From Actinomycetota bacterium (lineage in GTDB: Bacteria; Actinomycetota; Thermoleophilia; Solirubrobacterales; Solirubrobacteraceae), in assembly GCA_005885515.1 (NCBI GenBank), contig VAWK01000050.1, forward strand, positions 23,784 to 87,783: a stretch of DNA of 64,000 nt, in the 5' to 3' direction. Position numbers and translations under genes: made by a program. This document shows, piece after piece, positions 2,483 through 64,000 of this stretch; the stretch's first letter is position 1, and each line of letters opens with the position of its first letter. The notes under the pieces were generated by a model that worked only from the letters and a program-made list of their open reading frames with translations, made no database searches and had not been told where the DNA came from.

Positions 2483-4504
2483 GTGCACTCCACGCACACC
2501 CTCGTCCACACCCCAGGGACGGCCGGGCGGGCGGACCTGGTCGAGTCGCCTCGGCTGCGCGCGCCGGTCGCTCGCGGCGCGAGCCCTATCGCGCGCGGGG
2601 GCGAGCGCGCCGATGCAACAGGCCTCGACGCCCAGTCGCAGGCTCGCGGCGGTCCCGGTGAGCTGGTGCTGGGCCGCTATAGCCTGTGCGAGCGCCTGGG
2701 TGCGGGCGGCTTCGGCGTCGTTTGGCGTGCCCGTGACGAGCTCCTGGGTCGCGAAGTTGCGCTCAAGCGCATCTCGCTGCCCGACGGCGACAGCGAGCGG
2801 GCAAGCCGCGAGGCGCTCGCCGCGGCGCGTCTGGCGCATCCGGCGATCGTGGCGCTGTACGAGGCGTGCGCGGCGAGCGATGCCTTCTATCTGGTATCCG
2901 AGCTGGTGCGCGGGGAGACCCTCGCGGGGCTGATCGCGACGCGGGCGCTCGACGACGAGCGCGTGCTGGGAATCGGCATCGCGCTCGCCGATGCGCTCGC
3001 CCATGCGCACGCGCGGGGCGTGATCCACCGCGACGTCAAGCCGCAGAACGTGCTCGTGCCGTCCGACTCGCAGGCTGTCGCGCCGGCGCCACGCGGCTTG
3101 CCGGCGGTGGCGAAGCTCACCGACTTCGGTGGCGCCAGCCTCGCGGGCGATGATGTGCTGACGCGCACCGGCGACGTGCTCGGCACGCTCGCCTACATGG
3201 CCCCCGAGCAGAGCGACGGCGGCGAGGTCGGCGAGGCGGCCGACCTGTACTCGCTGGCGCTGATCCTGTACGAGGCGTTCTCCGGCGTCAATCCGGTGCG
3301 CGGTCCGACAGCCGCGGCCACCGCGCGGCGCATCGGACGTCCGCTCGAGCCGCTCGCGCGCTCGCGGGGCGACCTGCCGGCCCCGCTCACGTGCGCCCTC
3401 GATCGAGCGCTGGCTGCGCGCCCCGCTGATCGCGGCACGCTCGAGCAGCTGCGCGCGGCCCTCGCGCAGGCGCTCGCGCTGGGCGCCGAGGGCGGCCCCG
3501 CGCGGGGGCGACCGCTTGCTCGCGTGCGCCTCGCCGCAGAACGTACGCGGGCAGGCCGGCCGCGCGCCGAGGTGAGCACGTGGGCCGCGGCGCCGGCGAG
3601 CGCGGAGGGATGGGAGGCCGCCCCCGCGCTGCGCGCCTGGCAGGCGCCCCTCTCCCAGCAGACGGCCCCACGCGCCTCCCCGGCCCGCGCGCGGGCCACG
3701 TCGCGCCCGCGGCACGAGCCCCGACCGGCGTACGAGCCACGGCCGCCGCAGGAGCGCCGCCCCGCTGCGTCCGGTCCTGCGCGCGCCGAAGCCTCCGGCG
3801 GCCGCCGCACGCACGCGGCGCTGGCGCGCGCGCTGTGGATCGGGTGTGCGGTCGCGACCATGGCGTGGGAGGCATGGAGCGGACGCGTGGGGGTGGCGCT
3901 GCTGATGCTTGCGGCGATCGCGCCCCTGGTTGCGCTGTCATCGCCGCGGCGATCGGACACCGAGCAACAGAGCGCGACGATCGCCGGCCGCAACCTGCTG
4001 GCAGGAGCGCTGGCGCCGATCCTCGGGCTGGCGAGCCTCGCGGGCGCGTTCCCGGCGATCGCCGGCCAGGCCTCGCGCTGGCGCACGCGCGCCGCCCTGG
4101 GCGCCCTGGGCTACTGGTGGCTCACGCTCGGCGAGCCTCTGCTGGCCCGGAGACTGTGGCTTGGCCCGGCGCCGGGAACGCCGCCGCGGGCGGCGTGGGA
4201 GGGATCCGTGAGTAGCGCAGCGGTACACGTGCTGGGCCCGGTGCTGAGCTTCGGCGTGCTGTTCGGGGCTGCGCTGTGGGGCGCGGCCGCGGTCTGCCTG
4301 CCGTGGATGGTGCGGGGGCGCAGAGCGGCGTTCGACGTGGTGGCGGTCACCGTTTGGTCGGCGGCGCTGGCCGCCGCCGCGCCGCTGGTCGACCACGGCC
4401 TCTCCGCCACCGCCGCGCACGGGAGCCCGCGCGGAGCCGTGCTGGGGGCGGTGATCGGCGGGGTGTTGGCCGTCGCCGCGCGCGCTCTGCGCGGTCCGGT
4501 CTGA
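2483..4504 (+). CDS. Serine/threonine protein kinase with C-terminal transmembrane helices
   Basis: GRYSLCERLGAGGFGVVWRARDELLGREVALKRI, HRDVKPQNVL, DFGGA, GTLAYMAPEQ; several hydrophobic helices in the C-terminal half. True start may be downstream of 2483. Confidence 0.9.
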   Translation: MHSTHTLVHTPGTAGRADLVESPRLRAPVARGASPIARGGERADATGLDAQSQARGGPGELVLGRYSLCERLGAGGFGVVWRARDELLGREVALKRISLPDGDSERASREALAAARLAHPAIVALYEACAASDAFYLVSELVRGETLAGLIATRALDDERVLGIGIALADALAHAHARGVIHRDVKPQNVLVPSDSQAVAPAPRGLPAVAKLTDFGGASLAGDDVLTRTGDVLGTLAYMAPEQSDGGEVGEAADLYSLALILYEAFSGVNPVRGPTAAATARRIGRPLEPLARSRGDLPAPLTCALDRALAARPADRGTLEQLRAALAQALALGAEGGPARGRPLARVRLAAERTRAGRPRAEVSTWAAAPASAEGWEAAPALRAWQAPLSQQTAPRASPARARATSRPRHEPRPAYEPRPPQERRPAASGPARAEASGGRRTHAALARALWIGCAVATMAWEAWSGRVGVALLMLAAIAPLVALSSPRRSDTEQQSATIAGRNLLAGALAPILGLASLAGAFPAIAGQASRWRTRAALGALGYWWLTLGEPLLARRLWLGPAPGTPPRAAWEGSVSSAAVHVLGPVLSFGVLFGAALWGAAAVCLPWMVRGRRAAFDVVAVTVWSAALAAAAPLVDHGLSATAAHGSPRGAVLGAVIGGVLAVAARALRGPV

Positions 4505-7080: not shown

Positions 7081-8532
7081 GTGAACCAGCCGATCCTGCG
7101 CCTGTTCGGCTTTGTGGTGCTGATGTTCGCGCTGCTCGTGGCGTTCACCTCGCGGTGGACGGTCTTCGAGGCGTCGTCGCTGCGCGACAACCCGCTCAAC
7201 GCGCGGGCGCTGCTGCAGCAGCAGCGCATCGAACGTGGCCGCATCCTCGCCGCCAACGGCGCCGTGCTCGCGCGCAGCGTGCGCGCGCCGCGCTCCAGCG
7301 GCTCGGAAGTCACATTCGAACGCTCCTATCCGAGCGGCGAACAGTTCGCGCACCCGATCGGCTACTCGTACATCGATCTCGGCCGCACCGGCGTGGAGAG
7401 CTTCCGCAACAGCGCGCTGAACGGCCAGCGGGAAACGGGCCTGCAGTCGATCCTCGATCAGTTGCAGGGCGCGAGGTCGCGCGGGGACGAGGTGATCACC
7501 ACGCTCGACCCGCAAGCCCAGCAGGTGGCCAACACCGCGCTGGCCGGCCACGAAGGCGCGGTGGTGGCGCTCGACCCGCGCAGCGGCGCGGTGGAGGTGA
7601 TGGCCTCGCAGCCGAGCTATGACCCGAACGCGCTGCGCTCGCAGCGCAGCTACCGCCGGCGCGCGCTGGTCGCGCCCGGCCGCCCGCTCGTGAACCGCGC
7701 GACCCAGTTCGGGTACGCGCCTGGGTCGAGCTTCAAGGTGGTGACGGCCACGGCGGCGATCGACACGGGCGCGTTCACGCCCGAATCGACGGTGAGCGGG
7801 CGCGACAACGTGCCGATTTCGGGCGTGCCGCTGCAGAACGACAACAACGAGAGCTTCGGCGCGATCACGCTCACGGAGGGCCTCGCGAAGTCGGTCAACA
7901 CGGTGTGGGCGCAGGTGGCCGAACGGCTGGGCCGGCAGACGCTCGCCCGCTACATGACCCGCTTCGGCTTCGACCGCAAGCCCAAGCTGGACTATCCGGG
8001 CGAAGAGATGTCGGCCAGCGGCGAGTACGAGCGCGCGCGGCTGCTTGCGCCCACGAGCCGGCTGGTGGACGTGGGACGGCTGGGCATCGGGCAGGACAAA
8101 CTCGAGGTCACGCCGCTGCAGATGGCCGAGGTGGCGGCAGCGGTGGCCAACCACGGCAAGCTTATGGTGCCACACCTGACCGACAGGATCGTCGATCCCG
8201 ACGGGCGTACCGTGCAGCGCGTCGCCCCGCGGCTGCAGACGGTGGTGATGAAGTCCTCAACCGCCGACGCGGTCACCGCCATGATGGAGGCCGTGGTCAA
8301 CGAAGGCACAGGCACATCCGCGCAGATCCCGGGCGTGCAGGTGGCGGGCAAGACCGGGACGGCGGAGACGCAGATCGGCACGGCGATCAACAACGTGTGG
8401 TTCATCGCCTTCGCGCCCGCGTCGGCTCCGCGCGTGGCGATCGCGGTGACGCTGCGCGGCGTGCCGGGCCAGGGCGCGGCGTTCGCGGCGCCGGTCGCCC
8501 GGCAGGTGATCGAAAGGCTGCTGCATGCTTGA
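7081..8532 (+). CDS. pbpA: Penicillin-binding protein (PbpA-like transpeptidase)
   Basis: N-terminal TM; SSFK, SVN and KTGTAE transpeptidase motifs. Confidence 0.92.
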   Translation: MNQPILRLFGFVVLMFALLVAFTSRWTVFEASSLRDNPLNARALLQQQRIERGRILAANGAVLARSVRAPRSSGSEVTFERSYPSGEQFAHPIGYSYIDLGRTGVESFRNSALNGQRETGLQSILDQLQGARSRGDEVITTLDPQAQQVANTALAGHEGAVVALDPRSGAVEVMASQPSYDPNALRSQRSYRRRALVAPGRPLVNRATQFGYAPGSSFKVVTATAAIDTGAFTPESTVSGRDNVPISGVPLQNDNNESFGAITLTEGLAKSVNTVWAQVAERLGRQTLARYMTRFGFDRKPKLDYPGEEMSASGEYERARLLAPTSRLVDVGRLGIGQDKLEVTPLQMAEVAAAVANHGKLMVPHLTDRIVDPDGRTVQRVAPRLQTVVMKSSTADAVTAMMEAVVNEGTGTSAQIPGVQVAGKTGTAETQIGTAINNVWFIAFAPASAPRVAIAVTLRGVPGQGAAFAAPVARQVIERLLHA

Positions 8533-10513
8533 CCCCGGCACGACCATCGACGGCCGCTACCGGGTGCTCTCGCGCGTTGGCTCGGGCGGGATGGCCGACG
8601 TGTACCTGGCCGAAGACGGACTGCTGGGCAGGCAGGTGGCGGTCAAGCTGCTGCACCATCACTTCGCCGAGGACCAGGAGTTCGTGGAGCGCTTCCGGCG
8701 CGAGGCGTCAAGCGCGGCGGCGCTTTCGCACGCGAACATCGTCGCCATCTTCGACCGCGGCCAGTGGCAGGGGACGTACTACATCGCGATGGAGTACGTG
8801 GCCGGCCGATCGCTGAAGACGATCGTGCGCGAACAGGGCGCGCTTGATCCGGCGCTGGCGATCGACATCGTGTCGCAGATCCTCCATGCGGCCCGCTTCG
8901 CGCACCGGCACGGGGTCATTCACCGCGATCTCAAGCCGCACAACGTGCTGCTCGACGACGAGGGCCGGGCGCGCGTTACCGATTTCGGGATCGCGCGGGC
9001 GGGTGCGTCGGACATGACGCTGACCGGGTCGATCATGGGCACCGCGCAATACCTCTCGCCCGAGCAGGCGCAGGGCCATGCGGTGGGCGCGACCTCCGAC
9101 CTGTACTCGGTGGGGGTGATCCTGTACGAGCTGCTCACCGGTGTGGTGCCGTTCGAGGGCGAGACCGCGGTGGCGATCGCCTTCAAGCAGGTGGCAGCCG
9201 AGCCGCGACCTCCGAGCGCGCTCAATCCGGCCGTGTCGGGCGGCCTGGATGCGATCGTGCTGCGCGCCTTGGCCAAGGACCCGGATCGCCGCTTCTCTGA
9301 CGCGGACGAGTTCCGGGCGGCGCTGGCGCGCGAGCGCGCGGCGCTGCCCGCACCCGTCCCGGCGGCGGCCGCGGCGGCGGTGCTCGTGGGTGGTCCGCCG
9401 CCGCCGCCGGGGCCGGTTGGAGCATCGGCGGCGCGTCACACCGGCGGCGCGCTGCTGCTGCCCGCGGCGGGTGTGCGCGACGAGCGGCCGCTCCCCTCCG
9501 GTGGAGCCCCCGGGCGCCGGCGCCGGCTGCTGCTGGCGCTGGCCGCAGCCGTGCTCGTGGCGGCTGTGGTGCTGGCGCTGCTGCTGTCGGGAACGGCGGC
9601 GAAGGTGACCGTGCCCGACGTGACTGGACAGACCGAACAGGCGGCGGTCGCGACCCTGAGGCGCGCCGGGCTCGCCCCCGCTGCATCGCTGGCGGCAAGC
9701 TCGACGGTGGCGAGCGGGCTGGTGATCTCGGAGAGCCCGCACCGCGGCAGCAGGGTGGCCAGAGGCACGCGCGTGGCGATCACGGTCTCGAGCGGCCCGA
9801 GCAGCGCGGCGGTGGAGAACGTGGAAGGCCTGAGCGTCGCGCGGGCGATGGCGCGCTTGCGCGCGTCGGGCTTCAAGCCGGCGACGAAGTCTCAACCCAG
9901 TGCCTCGATCGCAAAGGGCCTGGTGATCGGGACCGACCCGCCGGCGGGAACGGTCGCGCTGGTAGGCAGCGCGGTGACGCTGCTCGTCTCGAGCGGGCCG
10001 GCGCAGGTGCGCGTCCCGGACGTGCTCGGGGAGTCGCAGACAGCGGCCGAAGCGGCGCTCACAGGCGCGGGCCTTGAGGTGGGCACGATCTCATCGCGCG
10101 TGTCCGGGCAGACCCCGGGCAGCGTGCTGGCGCAGTCGCCGCACGGCGGCGTGTCGCTGCCCAGCGGGAGCAAGGTGGGCCTGACGATCGCGCAGGCGCC
10201 GAGTCAGGTGGCGGTCCCCGGTGTGGTCGGCGAGGACGAGGCGAAGGCCGCGGCGGCGCTGGGCGCCGCCGGGCTGACGCCGAAGATCGTCTCGGCGAAG
10301 ACCAGCGAGCCGTCGCGGGTGGGGCTGGTGCTGAAGCAGTCGCCCGCGGCCGGGCACCGCGCGCGCAAGGGTGCGACGGTCACGCTGACGGTGGGAACAC
10401 TCGGCCCGCAGACCCAGACCACGCCCACCACGCCCACCACAACGACGCCGACCACGCCAACCACGACGAGCACCACGACGCCGCCGCCGGCCAGCGCACT
10501 GCCCGCCAAATGA
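8525..10513 (+). CDS. pknB: PknB-like Ser/Thr kinase with about four PASTA repeats and a Thr/Pro-rich tail
   Basis: GRYRVLSRVGSGGMADVYLAED, HRDLKPHNVL, DFGIAR; TM; repeats VPDVTGQTEQAAVATLRRAGL..., VENVEGLSVARAMARLRASGF..., VPDVLGESQTAAEAALTGAGL..., VPGVVGEDEAKAAAALGAAGL...; TTPTTPTTTTPTTP tail. Confidence 0.95.
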   Translation: MLDPGTTIDGRYRVLSRVGSGGMADVYLAEDGLLGRQVAVKLLHHHFAEDQEFVERFRREASSAAALSHANIVAIFDRGQWQGTYYIAMEYVAGRSLKTIVREQGALDPALAIDIVSQILHAARFAHRHGVIHRDLKPHNVLLDDEGRARVTDFGIARAGASDMTLTGSIMGTAQYLSPEQAQGHAVGATSDLYSVGVILYELLTGVVPFEGETAVAIAFKQVAAEPRPPSALNPAVSGGLDAIVLRALAKDPDRRFSDADEFRAALARERAALPAPVPAAAAAAVLVGGPPPPPGPVGASAARHTGGALLLPAAGVRDERPLPSGGAPGRRRRLLLALAAAVLVAAVVLALLLSGTAAKVTVPDVTGQTEQAAVATLRRAGLAPAASLAASSTVASGLVISESPHRGSRVARGTRVAITVSSGPSSAAVENVEGLSVARAMARLRASGFKPATKSQPSASIAKGLVIGTDPPAGTVALVGSAVTLLVSSGPAQVRVPDVLGESQTAAEAALTGAGLEVGTISSRVSGQTPGSVLAQSPHGGVSLPSGSKVGLTIAQAPSQVAVPGVVGEDEAKAAAALGAAGLTPKIVSAKTSEPSRVGLVLKQSPAAGHRARKGATVTLTVGTLGPQTQTTPTTPTTTTPTTPTTTSTTTPPPASALPAK

Positions 10514-49479: not shown

Positions 49480-49551
49480 CGGAGCCTCCTTGGGTTGTTT
49501 AGCTGATCGAAAGGACCGCAAGCCGCTGACGTACAGCGGTTCCGGATGCAG

Positions 49552-50235
49552 CTAGTCCGACGCAAACCGGCGACCGCCCGAGCGCGATCGCGAGCTCCCG
49601 TCGTCGCTGGGACGTTCCGCGGCGAACATCGCCGCCTGAACATCCCTGAGCCGGTCGACGTCGCCGCGCATGCCCGCGACAGCGTCATTGAAGAGGAAGG
49701 CCTCGCCGAGGCGCACGATCGCGTAGCCCAGCGTTGAAGGCTCGATGGCCGGCCGATACCGGCCCGCCTGCACCTCCTGCCTGATCAACGCGGTTACCAT
49801 CTCGACGATCCGGGGCTGCACCTTGCCAGCGCCCGAGATGATGACGCGCAGCGCCGCGTCGCGCTCGTTTTCGACGAACTGGCGCAGCGCCGGAGCGTCG
49901 GCAAGACTGCGGTTGAAGCGATCGAGGGTGTCGAGCAGGGCGAGTGCGCCCGTCCCGCGGGCGCCTACCCGTGCCTGCTCGAGCAGCGGTTCGGCGGCGC
50001 GCACGAGAACCTCGCCGATGAGCTCGTCGCGTGAGCCGAACCAGCGGTAGATCGTCGTGCGACCGAGCCCGAGCTCGCCTGCGATCGCGTGCACGTCGAT
50101 GCGCCGTCCGCGGAGGTAGCGGTGCATCGCCAGGGCAAGCACGTCCCCGCGGCTGGCGGCTGGCGGCCGGCCGCGCGACTGGGTAGGTACTGCCGATTGG
50201 ATCGAGGTCTCCGTCATGACATGAAACAATCCCAA
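49552..50235 (-). CDS. TetR-family regulator (QsdR-like), paralog of 35297-35977
   Basis: LALAMHRYLRGRRIDVHAIAGELGLGRTTIYRWFGSRDELIGEVLVRAAEPLL...LDTLDRFNRSLADAPALRQFVENERDAALRVI. Confidence 0.9.
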   Translation of the reverse strand: MGLFHVMTETSIQSAVPTQSRGRPPAASRGDVLALAMHRYLRGRRIDVHAIAGELGLGRTTIYRWFGSRDELIGEVLVRAAEPLLEQARVGARGTGALALLDTLDRFNRSLADAPALRQFVENERDAALRVIISGAGKVQPRIVEMVTALIRQEVQAGRYRPAIEPSTLGYAIVRLGEAFLFNDAVAGMRGDVDRLRDVQAAMFAAERPSDDGSSRSRSGGRRFASD

Positions 50236-55025: not shown

Positions 55026-55091
55026 AGCCTGCAGGCAGCACTCGGCCTGCGCGCCCGGGGCACAGTCGTAGCCGGTCCTCAGCTCAGCCAT
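55014..55091 (-). other. 25-aa Cys-containing micro-ORF overlapping the arsR 3' end
   Basis: MAELRTGYDCAPGAQAECCLQAGGP-stop; ATG overlaps the arsR C-terminal codons (GCATGGCTGAGCTGA). Confidence 0.4.
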
Positions 55092-55432
55092 GCGGACAGC
55101 TCCTCCAGAGCCTCCGGGATGACGTAGTAGTAGGCCCACAGCCCGCGGCGCTCGGAGTCCACAATGCCCGCGTCGCGAAGCTTCTTCAAGTGATGCGAAA
55201 GCGTGGGCTGGGAGATCTCGAACAGGGGCACGAGCTCACACACGCACACCTTGCCGGCGTGCCTGCGCAGCACGTCGACGAGCTGAAGGCGCACGGGGTC
55301 GCCGAGCGCCTTGGCGACCACGGCCATGCGGCTCGCCGCCTCACGCTGCACGTCTGGGTAGACGACGGGCTCGCAGCAGCGCTCGCCCGCAGGGCGCTTC
55401 TGCTTGGGGGCAAGTTCCAGATCGACAGCCAT
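55079..55432 (-). CDS. arsR: ArsR-family metalloregulator
   Basis: ALGDPVRLQLVDVLRRHAGKVCVCELVPLFEISQPTLSHHLKKLRDAGIVDSERRGLWAYYYV; CVCEL metal-site motif. Confidence 0.92.
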   Translation of the reverse strand: MAVDLELAPKQKRPAGERCCEPVVYPDVQREAASRMAVVAKALGDPVRLQLVDVLRRHAGKVCVCELVPLFEISQPTLSHHLKKLRDAGIVDSERRGLWAYYYVIPEALEELSAWLS

Positions 55433-55439
55433 CTATGTA

Positions 55440-55468
55440 CATATATCGATTGAACCGACATCTGTCAA
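55440..55468 (-). promoter_or_regulatory. Consensus promoter for arsR: TTGACA-N17-TATATG
   Basis: Minus strand ttgacagatgtcggttcaatcgatatatg, with the -10 ending 7 nt before the ATG at 55432; ATTGA-N11-TCAAT inverted repeat (55449-55469) overlaps it. Confidence 0.65.
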
Positions 55469-55486
55469 TGGATAGGGTTTTGGATC

Positions 55487-56209
55487 GTGACCGACGCCGC
55501 AGCGGTGATCACTGACGTTCACGCCAACCTCCCCGCGTTGCAGGCCGCGCTCAGGCGCATCGACGATCTGGGCATCGACCACGTCTACTGCGGCGGTGAC
55601 CTGGTGGGGTACGGGCCGCACCCTAACGAGGTGTGCACGTTGATCGCCGAGCGCCAGATACCGACGATCTACGGCAACTACGACTACGCGATCGCGCGCG
55701 ATGAACACGACTGCGGCTGCGCCTACGTCACTCCTCACGAGCGCGAGCTCGGGCAGCTCTCGGTCGAGTGGACGCTCACCCATACCGAGCAGGCGGCCAA
55801 GGACTTCATGCGCGGCTTGTCGTTCGACCTGCGCTTCCCGGTCGGGGCGGTTAACGTCCACCTCGTCCACGGCTCGCCGAGAAAAGTCAACGAGTACCTC
55901 TTCGTGGACAAGCCGGCGAGCCTCTATGAGCGGCTCGCTGCGGCCGAGAGCGATCCGGTATTGGCATTCGGCCATACCCACAAACCGTGGGCGCGAGAAT
56001 TCGGCGGCGTGCTGTTCATCAACTGCGGCTCGGTGGGCAAGCCCAAGGATGGTGACCCGCGCGCGGCCTTCGCGATCCTGCACCCCGCGCGCGAGAAGGT
56101 GCAGGTGACGATCGAGCGCGCCGACTACGACGCCGGCGCGGTCGCGGCACAGGTTCGGAGCGCCGGGCTGCCGGGCGAGTACGCCGAGAAGCTGCTCTTG
56201 GCCGCCTGA
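55487..56209 (+). CDS. Metallophosphoesterase (YfcE-like phosphodiesterase family)
   Basis: AAVITDVHANLPALQAALRRID, VYCGGDLVGYGPHPNEV, IYGNYDYAI, VHGSPRKVNEYLF, FGHTHKPW, NCGSVGKPKDGDPRAAFAIL. Confidence 0.92.
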   Translation: MTDAAAVITDVHANLPALQAALRRIDDLGIDHVYCGGDLVGYGPHPNEVCTLIAERQIPTIYGNYDYAIARDEHDCGCAYVTPHERELGQLSVEWTLTHTEQAAKDFMRGLSFDLRFPVGAVNVHLVHGSPRKVNEYLFVDKPASLYERLAAAESDPVLAFGHTHKPWAREFGGVLFINCGSVGKPKDGDPRAAFAILHPAREKVQVTIERADYDAGAVAAQVRSAGLPGEYAEKLLLAA

Positions 56210-56348
56210 ACGGAGCGTTTGAGGTACGTGCTTTTCGTCTTTAACCCACGACGCCAGGCGCTCGCAGATGGCGCTGACCTTCTTCGAACGGCTCGGCCGC
56301 CCGGGCGTTACGCGCCGAGCCAGCGGGCAGCGAAGCGGCTGAGGTGCC

Positions 56349-57140
56349 ATGCGACGCGATCGGAGACCGGGCGTGAGCGGAACTAGCACTCCTCCGCTCC
56401 CCCGCAGAGCGCTCGCCGAGCTCCTCGGATCGGCGTTCCTCGCGGCGCTCGTGATCGGCTCGGGCATCGCTGCGCAGGAACTCTCCCCCGGGAACGTGGG
56501 CCTGCAGCTGTTCGAGAATGCCGCTGCCACCGCGGCTGGCCTGTTCACGATCATCCTCATGTTCGGCCCCGTCTCCGCCGGCCACTTCAACCCGGTGGTC
56601 TCGGTCGTCGACGCGAGCTACGGCGGCATCAGCTGGCGCGACGCGCTCACATACGTGCCCGCCCAGGTGGCCGGCTGCACGCTCGGCGCCATCGCCGCCA
56701 ACGGCATGTTCACCAAGGCGGCCATCAGCCTCTCAACGCACCATCGCGCCTCGTCCGCCCACCTCTTTGGCGAGGTGATCGCCACTGCGGGCCTCGTACT
56801 CGTGATCTTCACCCTCGCGCGTACGCGGCGCAGTCATATGGCGCCCGCGGCCGTGGGCGCCTACATCGGCGCTGCCTACTTCTTCACCAGCTCCGCCAGC
56901 TTCGCCAACCCCGCGATCACCGTCGGACGGATGTACTCGAACACGTTTGCGGGCATCGCGCCGGCGTCGGTACCCGGCTTCGTGCTCGCTCAGCTGGTCG
57001 GCGGGGCGGCGGCGGTCCTCGCTCTCCGGGTGCTCTATCCGGACCACACACCTGCCGATGCCGCCGAGGTCGTGTTGCCACGCGGCGGTCCAGTCGACAT
57101 AGCAATCGCCATGCTTCCGGAGTCGACAAGCCGGGAGTAA
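56349..57140 (+). CDS. Aquaporin / MIP family channel
   Basis: ALAELLGSAFLAALVIGSGIAAQ...GPVSAGHFNPVVSVVDA...AYFFTSSASFANPAITVGRMYSNTFAGI; six TM helices. Confidence 0.88.
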   Translation: MRRDRRPGVSGTSTPPLPRRALAELLGSAFLAALVIGSGIAAQELSPGNVGLQLFENAAATAAGLFTIILMFGPVSAGHFNPVVSVVDASYGGISWRDALTYVPAQVAGCTLGAIAANGMFTKAAISLSTHHRASSAHLFGEVIATAGLVLVIFTLARTRRSHMAPAAVGAYIGAAYFFTSSASFANPAITVGRMYSNTFAGIAPASVPGFVLAQLVGGAAAVLALRVLYPDHTPADAAEVVLPRGGPVDIAIAMLPESTSRE

Positions 57141-61506: not shown

Positions 61507-63597
61507 ATGAGCACACTGCGGGCTTGGATACTCCTTGCGCTGGCGCTGCTCGCCTCCGTCGCCGGCGCGCTACCGGGTGCGGCGGCGGAACTGCCGACCG
61601 AACCGAAATGCGAGTTCATCGCCAGCCCCGGCAGCAGCAAGTGCATGCTGCCGTTTCCCGACGACTACTACACCAAGGCCGATCCGACGAGCCCCACGGG
61701 GCGGCGTATCGACTTCCGCGAACTGGGCATGCCCACGAACGCCGCCGGTGTGCCAATCGAAGTCGCTCCGTACAACGTAGGCGACGGCTTCAGCCCGGGC
61801 TCGGTGATCACGGTGAAGATCCCCGGGATCGAAACGGCCGCCGACGTGGCGGCGATGCGTACCGTGCCGATCAACGGAATCGGCCGCTACACCGCGTCGG
61901 GCGCGCCGATCTTGGTGATCGATGCGAGCAGCGGGCAGCGCTGGCCGATCTGGGTCGAGATCGACTCGACGGTCAAACCGGACAAGGCAAACGTCGAGAT
62001 CCATCCCGCGGTCAACTTCACCTCGGGCCACCGCTACATCGTCGCCCTGCGGAACCTGAGAAACGCAAACAAACAGCACCTCGAAGCGCCCGAAGGGTTC
62101 CGCTTCTACCGCGACAACCTCCCCTCCTCCGAAGAAAAGGTCAACGCACGCCGTGCACACTTCGCCGAACTATTCTCCAAGCTCAAAGCCGCCGGCATCG
62201 CGCGCTCGAGCCTCTACCTCGCATGGGACTTCACGGTCGCCAGCGACCAGAACAACACCGGCCGGGAGCTCGCGGTGCGCAACGCCGCGTTCGCGCAGCT
62301 CGGCGACACCAACCTCGCCGACGGCATCGTGCAGGGAAGCTCGCCCACGTTCACTGTCACGAGCGTCGAAAACGAACCTGACCCCGGTGAAATCGCGCGG
62401 CGGGTCAAGGGCGAAATCGTCGTGCCTTGCTTCCTGTTCCCGAGCTGCGGGCCCGGCGGCACGATGGTGCTGGGCGCCGGAGGCGCGCCGGTCCAGAACG
62501 GCATCTGGAGCGCCAACTTCGACTGCATCATCCCCGCCGTGGCCACCACCGGTCCCGGAGAGTCGGCGCGCCCGTCGCTCTACGGGCACGGCCTCTTCGG
62601 AAACGCCGGCGAGGTCGCCTCCGGCCCGCAGCGAAGCCTCTCCCAGGCGCACGACACCGTTCAGTGCGCGACCGATGAGATCGGCATGGCCGAGTCGGAC
62701 ATCCCGTCGGCGGTGGCCGCCACTCAGAACCTGTCGCTGTTCGACAGGATCCCCGATCGCCTGCAGCAGGGGCTGCTCGACGAGCTCTACCTCGGCCGCG
62801 CGCTGATCAGCCCGAGCGGCTTCACAACCAACGCCGCCTTCCACCAGGACGGCACGCTCTCCACGCCGTCCGTGCTGAACATCAGCCACCTCTACTACAA
62901 CGGCAACAGCCAGGGCGGCATCATGGGCGGCGCGCTTACGGCAGTATCGCCCGACTTCAGGCGTGCGTCGCTAGGCGTGCCGGCGATGAACTACTCGGTG
63001 CTGCTGCCGCGGTCGGTGGACTTCGACCAGTTCGCCGAACTTCTGTACCCGGCCTACCCCGACGAAGAATCACGGCCGCTGATCTTCGACATCATCCAGC
63101 TGCTGTGGGACCGCGGCGAGCCTGACGGCTACGCACAGCGGATGACCTCGAACCCGCTGCCCGACACCCCGTCCCACCAGGTGCTGCTGGACGTGGCCTT
63201 CGGCGATCACCAGGTGACCGACTACCAGGCCGACGTGGAGGCGCGCACGGTCGGCGCGAGAGCGCATCGCCCGGTCCTGTATGAAGGGCGCTGGCCGAGC
63301 GGGTTGCCGCTGTGGAGCGTGGACGGGATCGTCACGTATCCCTACACAGGGTCGGCGATCTACTACTGGGACGGCGGGCCGATCCGTGAAAGCGCGCCCG
63401 GCTCGGGCCAGTTCATGGGCACCGAACCGCCCCCGTTCGAAAACCTGCCCAACCGCTCGGGCGCAGACCCGCACGGCCTGCCGCGCGCCACTCCCGCCGA
63501 GCAGCAGCTCGTCTCGGACTTCTTCGAAGGCGCCGTTCAGGTGGGCGACAGCTGCAACGGCGGTCCCTGCTACTCGGGCAGCTTCACCGGGCCGTAG
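61507..63597 (+). CDS. Large secreted alpha/beta hydrolase-like protein (696 aa)
   Basis: Signal peptide MSTLRAWILLALALLASVAGALPGAAAE; nucleophile elbow-like YYNGNSQGGIMGGAL; FGDHQVTDYQADV; starts 1 nt after the CalB-like gene ends. Confidence 0.78.
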   Translation: MSTLRAWILLALALLASVAGALPGAAAELPTEPKCEFIASPGSSKCMLPFPDDYYTKADPTSPTGRRIDFRELGMPTNAAGVPIEVAPYNVGDGFSPGSVITVKIPGIETAADVAAMRTVPINGIGRYTASGAPILVIDASSGQRWPIWVEIDSTVKPDKANVEIHPAVNFTSGHRYIVALRNLRNANKQHLEAPEGFRFYRDNLPSSEEKVNARRAHFAELFSKLKAAGIARSSLYLAWDFTVASDQNNTGRELAVRNAAFAQLGDTNLADGIVQGSSPTFTVTSVENEPDPGEIARRVKGEIVVPCFLFPSCGPGGTMVLGAGGAPVQNGIWSANFDCIIPAVATTGPGESARPSLYGHGLFGNAGEVASGPQRSLSQAHDTVQCATDEIGMAESDIPSAVAATQNLSLFDRIPDRLQQGLLDELYLGRALISPSGFTTNAAFHQDGTLSTPSVLNISHLYYNGNSQGGIMGGALTAVSPDFRRASLGVPAMNYSVLLPRSVDFDQFAELLYPAYPDEESRPLIFDIIQLLWDRGEPDGYAQRMTSNPLPDTPSHQVLLDVAFGDHQVTDYQADVEARTVGARAHRPVLYEGRWPSGLPLWSVDGIVTYPYTGSAIYYWDGGPIRESAPGSGQFMGTEPPPFENLPNRSGADPHGLPRATPAEQQLVSDFFEGAVQVGDSCNGGPCYSGSFTGP

Positions 63598-63786: not shown

Positions 63787-63829
63787 TGGAGCTAGCCGGA
63801 CTCGAACCGGCGACCTCCTGGGTGCGATC
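63787..63829 (-). tRNA. tRNA-Ala-like 3' fragment (no 5' half); attachment-site type remnant
   Basis: Minus strand ggatcgcacccaggaggtcgccggttcgagtccggctagctcca: T-arm GCCGG-TTCGAGT-CCGGC and acceptor TAGCTCCA (compatible with G3:U70 tRNA-Ala); D-arm and 5' acceptor are absent from the expected upstream position. Confidence 0.65.
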
Positions 63830-64000
63830 CACCGACTCTGCACACTGATTTCGTGTCAAAAGGTGCCGATTAGCGGGGGTTTGTGAATGGCCCAAATCCC
63901 AGCCCTCGGCGCGGATGCACGTGGATTATCGGCGATTATCTGCGACTCAGGCACTTTTGACACGAAATCAGTGTGCAGAGTCGGTGGATAGCACCCAGGA
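63816..64000. repeat. Near-perfect ~46-bp inverted repeat (arms 63816-63861 and 63955-64000)
   Basis: Arm: ttttgacacgaaatcagtgtgcagagtcggtggat[c/a]gcacccagga; 45/46 match; spacer 63862-63954; right arm cut by window end. Confidence 0.95.

What the first reader, a model, noticed from the sequence alone, without database searches (positions are those of the whole stretch)
63816..64000. Inverted ~46-bp att-like repeats at a tRNA fragment at the window's right end
The sequence ttttgacacgaaatcagtgtgcagagtcggtggatNgcacccagga is present on the minus strand (63816-63861) and on the plus strand (63955-64000), 45/46 identical, separated by 93 bp. The left copy runs directly into a tRNA-Ala-like 3' half. 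Integrases commonly recombine at the 3' half of tRNA genes, so this looks like the edge of an integrated element. The inverted (not direct) orientation is unusual and could reflect an inversion, nested insertions, or a recombinase-controlled invertible segment. The right copy probably continues outside the window.
Basis: partly seen in the sequence, partly recalled or inferred. Interest (0 to 1): 0.72.

Follow-up and report, generated by a model that had tools for sequence, protein, structure and literature searches.

The report
tRNA-Ala attachment site with fold-back copy
The window ends inside an ordinary landing site where mobile DNA recombined with an alanine tRNA gene of an uncultured actinobacterium (Solirubrobacterales), and the odd inverted copy sits at the very end of the assembled contig and is most likely a strand fold-back artefact, not a genetic switch.

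Summary
The inverted repeat is real as sequence: arms 63816-63862 and 63954-64000, 46/47 matching, 91 nt apart. The two arms differ in status.

The left arm belongs to a genuine attachment (att) site. On the minus strand it reads into a tRNA-Ala(CGC) 3' half (63787-63831), preceded by a ~120-bp module that recurs in about 25 of 101 related genomes. Of 33 strong copies examined, 25 are followed at a near-fixed distance by a tRNA half (Ala-CGC, Ala-TGC, His, probably Gly), against 2 of 300 random pieces. In relatives the halves lie in same-strand arrays downstream of intact tRNA genes, and a tyrosine integrase of one subfamily lies beside the intact tRNA-Ala in several. So this is the distal (attR-type) end of an integrated element.

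The right arm ends exactly at the end of contig C7. It starts at the apex of the module's conserved hairpin, in place of the hairpin's missing arm, with a 9-10 nt inverted microhomology (GGCACTTTT / AAAAGGTGCC) at the junction. None of 41 other fragments has such a copy. Best reading: snap-back template switching, probably in library preparation or assembly, possibly in the cell. An invertible segment or nested element is poorly supported. Reads could not be examined.

The parts
63787..63831 (-). 3' half of tRNA-Ala(CGC), from the anticodon stem-loop to the discriminator base (att core); no 5' half present
   Evidence: 45/45 identical to intact tRNA-Ala(CGC) 3' halves in many relatives; no complete tRNA in the window
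63832..63854 (-). spacer between att module and tRNA half (family spacing class 27-30 nt from module end to anticodon)
   Evidence: alignment; spacing classes
63855..63953 (-). native part of the att module: hairpin 3' arm, AATC-type direct repeats, CCCGCTAATCGGCACCTTTTG pre-core motif
   Evidence: covariance model R1 match 63855-63966, 75 bits (the window copy is one of the 11 training sequences); alignment A1
63910..63940 (-). three ATC-type repeats about 10-11 bp apart, putative integrase arm-binding sites
   Evidence: conserved columns in A1; binding role inferred
63816..63862 (-). left arm of the inverted repeat (original copy: spacer plus start of the tRNA half)
   Evidence: preceded by the family-conserved pre-core AATCGGCACCTTTTG
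63954..64000 (+). right arm of the inverted repeat (secondary copy, starts at the hairpin apex, cut by the contig end)
63950..63958 (+). GGCACTTTT, pairs with AAAAGGTGCC at 63858-63867: inverted microhomology at the fold junction
   Evidence: sequence, junction print
49546..49590 (-). degenerate tRNA-Ala 3' half, same strand, probable older att scar
   Evidence: 34/45 identity; 60 shuffled queries reached at most 29; BLAST hit

Best explanation
The right end of the window is the distal attachment site (attR-type: element-borne arm module joined to a displaced tRNA 3' half) of an element integrated by a tyrosine integrase at the anticodon/3' half of tRNA-Ala(CGC). The rest of the element and the intact tRNA should lie to the right, beyond the contig end. 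The second, inverted copy (63954-64000) is a snap-back copy: a 3' end at the tip of the module's hairpin (GGCACTTTT) paired with the inverted microhomology AAAAGGTGCC 82 nt back and was extended over the original spacer and tRNA start. This most likely happened during library preparation or assembly, giving a chimeric dead-end contig tip, and less likely in the cell. Shown: the sequence, the tRNA half, the conserved module, arrays and integrase linkage in relatives, the junction position and the contig end. Inferred: integrase action on this copy, arm binding, and the fold-back step.
For: The tRNA half is identical to intact tRNA-Ala(CGC) 3' halves of relatives. Module model R1 hits about 25 of 101 relatives at E<1e-4. 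25 of 33 strong modules are followed by a tRNA half, mostly at 18-20 or 27-30 nt, against 2 of 300 random pieces. Halves lie downstream, on the same strand, of intact tRNAs: Ala in G052, G018 and G044 and His in G052. The top members of one integrase subfamily lie beside or near the intact tRNA-Ala in G052, G044, G020 and G018; G020 C37 shows a compact unit of about 4.3 kb, tRNA-integrase-module-3' half. Fold-back: in the model alignment the window lacks exactly the hairpin's far arm (model positions 4-11); the right arm begins at the hairpin tip at an inverted microhomology; it ends at the contig end; no other fragment of 41 has an inverted copy. Chimeric reads with cis inverted repeats are documented in sonicated libraries (PMC10908179).
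Against: Reads and coverage were not available, so in-vitro and in-vivo origin cannot be separated. Other contig ends do not show fold-back tails (1 of 44 ends tested), so it is not a systematic fault of this assembly. The arms differ by one base, which needs a read error or a mutation. No integrase was found on C7; the nearest relative of the subfamily in this genome is a copy with an in-frame stop on C42.
Confidence: 0.74

Rival explanations
1. Real in-vivo inverted duplication: replication stalled at the att hairpin, the nascent strand snapped back and the duplicated core became fixed in this population.
For: Same junction signature; the hairpin and the GGCAC/AGTGCC inverted pair are intrinsic to the module family; one mismatch between arms fits some age; fold-back tails are not general at contig ends.
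Against: Ends exactly at the contig end; not seen at any of 41 other fragments; the 36 nt before the mismatch are identical in both arms, so it would have to be recent.
Confidence: 0.16
2. Two adjacent or nested integrated elements in opposite orientation, each contributing a tRNA half (AGC- and CGC-type).
For: Arrays of elements at tRNA-Ala are common in relatives; the two cores differ at the anticodon.
Against: Arrays that can be traced to an intact tRNA keep one strand. The spacer upstream of the core varies between sites, yet here it is identical in both copies. Only 91 nt separate the arms and there is one module, not two.
Confidence: 0.06
3. Recombinase-controlled invertible segment of about 91 bp flanked by inverted core sites.
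For: Inverted copies of an integrase core do flank a short segment.
Against: No integrase on C7; the segment is shorter than the DNA persistence length of about 150 bp (established knowledge); the segment is the conserved att module in its usual orientation; no relative has the arrangement.
Confidence: 0.03

Closest known systems
Genomic islands at tRNA genes integrated by tyrosine integrases (Islander-type, PMC4383910)
   Same: Displaced tRNA 3' fragment marks the distal end; in relatives the intact tRNA and integrase are at the other end, with same-strand arrays.
   Different: The intact tRNA end is off the contig here, and the window piece has no integrase.
Tycheposons and other integrase-poor tRNA-anchored elements (from memory; only passing mentions found)
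   Same: Small cargo segments delimited by tRNA 3' ends, many without a recombinase.
   Different: Different phylum; tycheposon hallmark genes were not tested; no relationship is claimed.
Fold-back chimeric reads from inverted repeats in library preparation (PMC10908179)
   Same: Chimera of a strand and its inverted complement joined at a short inverted repeat.
   Different: Described in human capture libraries; here inferred from a contig end without reads.

Membership tests
Tyrosine-integrase element at a tRNA gene | tRNA 3' fragment without its 5' half at one end | tested here: met
   63787-63831
Tyrosine-integrase element at a tRNA gene | intact tRNA of the same identity at the other end, same strand | tested here: inconclusive
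   Expected beyond the contig end; no intact tRNA-Ala(CGC) found in the 92%-complete assembly. Met in relatives G052, G018, G044, G020
Tyrosine-integrase element at a tRNA gene | integrase gene inside the element | tested here: inconclusive
   None on C7 (with working positive control), but most of the element is off the contig; present beside the intact tRNA in relatives
Tyrosine-integrase element at a tRNA gene | arm-type direct repeats next to the core | tested here: met
   AATC-type repeats conserved in A1 at near-fixed distance from tRNA halves; binding itself not testable
Invertible DNA segment | both orientations present in the population | not testable with these tools
   needs reads
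Invertible DNA segment | cognate recombinase nearby | tested here: not met
   no tyrosine integrase on C7 at E<1e-3; serine recombinases were not tested
Integron attC array | IntI-type integrase and attC core sites | tested here: not met
   Core is a tRNA 3' half; the linked integrase in relatives is phage-type (Pfam; PHROG 1)

The most novel reading that the evidence does not exclude
Solirubrobacterales carry a lineage-wide system in which one att module (hairpin plus three phased repeats) has been paired with cores from several tRNA genes (Ala-CGC, Ala-TGC, His-GTG, probably Gly) and builds same-strand arrays of roughly 4-10 kb cargo units, many lacking an integrase and possibly served in trans by a single tRNA-proximal integrase, comparable in logic to an integron.
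Probability: 0.3. Interest if true: 0.55.

Novelty: new member of a known kind. Interest (0 to 1): 0.27.

Why it matters
The inverted copy should not be read as a switch: it marks a place where a structured, repeated att site makes assemblies stop and fold. The useful outcome is the att module itself. It lets element boundaries and cargo arrays be mapped in a large, mostly uncultured lineage, and it offers a reason why intact tRNA-Ala genes are missing from such assemblies.

Tried and rejected
Systematic contig-end artefact: rejected, only 1 of 44 ends has a fold-back. Dispersed repeat: rejected, the 35-mer occurs only twice, both in this repeat. Group I intron or tmRNA (considered because the break is at the anticodon and the acceptor is Ala): not pursued, since relatives show displaced 3' halves beside integrases. 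Integron attC: rejected. Synteny to find an empty site: only the 61.5-63.6 kb gene, plus a 55-57 kb stretch in one relative, is shared with the named relatives compared, and none has tRNA-Ala next to it. Phage records hold only distant integrases, listed rows 36% identity or less.

Full report
Observation. The inverted repeat is present as described: 47-nt arms at 63816-63862 and 63954-64000, 46/47 matching, 91 nt apart, with a folding z-score of -12.9. The one mismatch is 63826/63990. The window is C7:23784-87783 of a 2.69-Mb, 79-contig assembly and C7 is 87,783 bp long, so the right arm ends with the contig.

Organism. Relatives of the neighbouring 696-aa protein (61507-63597) are MAGs labelled mostly Solirubrobacterales or Actinobacteria. 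The same gene is 73-82% identical in five other genomes of the genus. It has no Pfam match.

tRNA part. Minus strand 63831-63787 is a tRNA-Ala(CGC) 3' half, identical over 45 nt to intact tRNA-Ala(CGC) genes of relatives. No complete tRNA is in the window, and no intact tRNA-Ala(CGC) was found in the assembly.

Att module. Aligning about two dozen tRNA-Ala fragments from relatives showed, in about half of them, a shared upstream module: a (T)CAGGCACT...AGTGCCTGA hairpin, three AATC-type repeats about 10-11 bp apart, then CCTGCAAATCGGCACCTTTTG, a variable spacer, and the tRNA half. A covariance model built from 11 copies (R1) gave about 58 hits at E<1e-4 in about 25 of 101 related genomes. Of 33 strong modules examined, 25 are followed by a tRNA half: Ala-CGC, Ala-TGC, His, a presumed Gly half (assigned by eye), and one antisense Ala 5' half. 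Most start 18-20 or 27-30 nt after the module, about one helical turn apart; random pieces gave 2 of 300. Some of these 33 helped build the model or were found through tRNA-Ala, so the share is somewhat inflated; among the 21 found by the model alone it is 13.

Element logic. In relatives the halves lie downstream of, and on the same strand as, intact tRNA genes, a few kb apart: tRNA-Ala in G052, G018 and G044 and tRNA-His in G052. A tyrosine integrase lies beside the intact tRNA-Ala in G052 and G044 (62% identical to each other), and in G020 and, broken, about 1.3 kb away in G018. G020 C37 is a compact unit: tRNA-Ala(TGC), integrase, module, displaced 3' half, within about 4.3 kb. In G052 the intermediate units of 4.5-7 kb show no integrase even with stops read through; cargo includes an esterase, a LysR regulator and an MFS transporter. 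By the same geometry the window's element and its intact tRNA lie beyond the contig end, and the degenerate half at 49546-49590 is a likely older scar. C7 itself holds no detectable tyrosine integrase, while the same queries find the integrases on C30, C42 and C70.

The inverted copy. The left arm is the original: it is preceded by the family-conserved pre-core motif. The right arm is attached instead to the tip of the hairpin. The model alignment shows the window lacks exactly the hairpin's far arm. At the junction GGCACTTTT (63950-63958) faces AAAAGGTGCC (63858-63867), an inverted microhomology that is partly intrinsic to the module family. None of 41 other fragments has an inverted copy of 12 nt or more within 400 nt, and other contig ends of this assembly do not fold back. 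I conclude snap-back copying at a structured site, most likely in vitro or in assembly because it ends at the contig tip. Fold-back chimeras at inverted repeats are documented (PMC10908179). Without reads the in-vivo alternative stays open.

Known or new. Tyrosine-integrase elements at tRNA genes with displaced 3' fragments are well known (PMC4383910). The module and its use with several tRNAs in this order were not found described, but only one literature search addressed it (no paper held), which is weak evidence of novelty.

Noticed in passing
49546-49590 (-): Degenerate tRNA-Ala 3' half on the same strand, 34/45 identical; probable older att scar about 14 kb from the main one, with no recognisable module beside it.
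   Followed up: partly
L057 (G000:C47) 2753-2792 and 3734-3773: Two tRNA-Ala(TGC) 3' halves about 1 kb apart on a 4.8-kb contig of the same genome; no intact TGC tRNA-Ala was recognised in the assembly.
   Followed up: partly
L222 (G097:C69) 8515-8720: Att module joined to the antisense 5' half of tRNA-Ala(CGC) instead of a 3' half, which may reflect the near-palindromic anticodon stem acting as core.
   Followed up: no
33 modules (loci L037-L049, L208-L226): Module-to-core distances fall mostly into two classes, 18-20 and 27-30 nt, about one helical turn apart.
   Followed up: no
L069 (G009:C7:340213-342339): A 45%-identical paralogue of the window's 696-aa protein lies about 0.5 kb from a tRNA-Ala 3' half in a relative, so this gene family may be cargo.
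   Followed up: no
55079-57140: ArsR-like regulator and phosphoesterase-like gene (both by eye) beside a Pfam-confirmed aquaporin-family gene, resembling a metalloid-response cluster.
   Followed up: no
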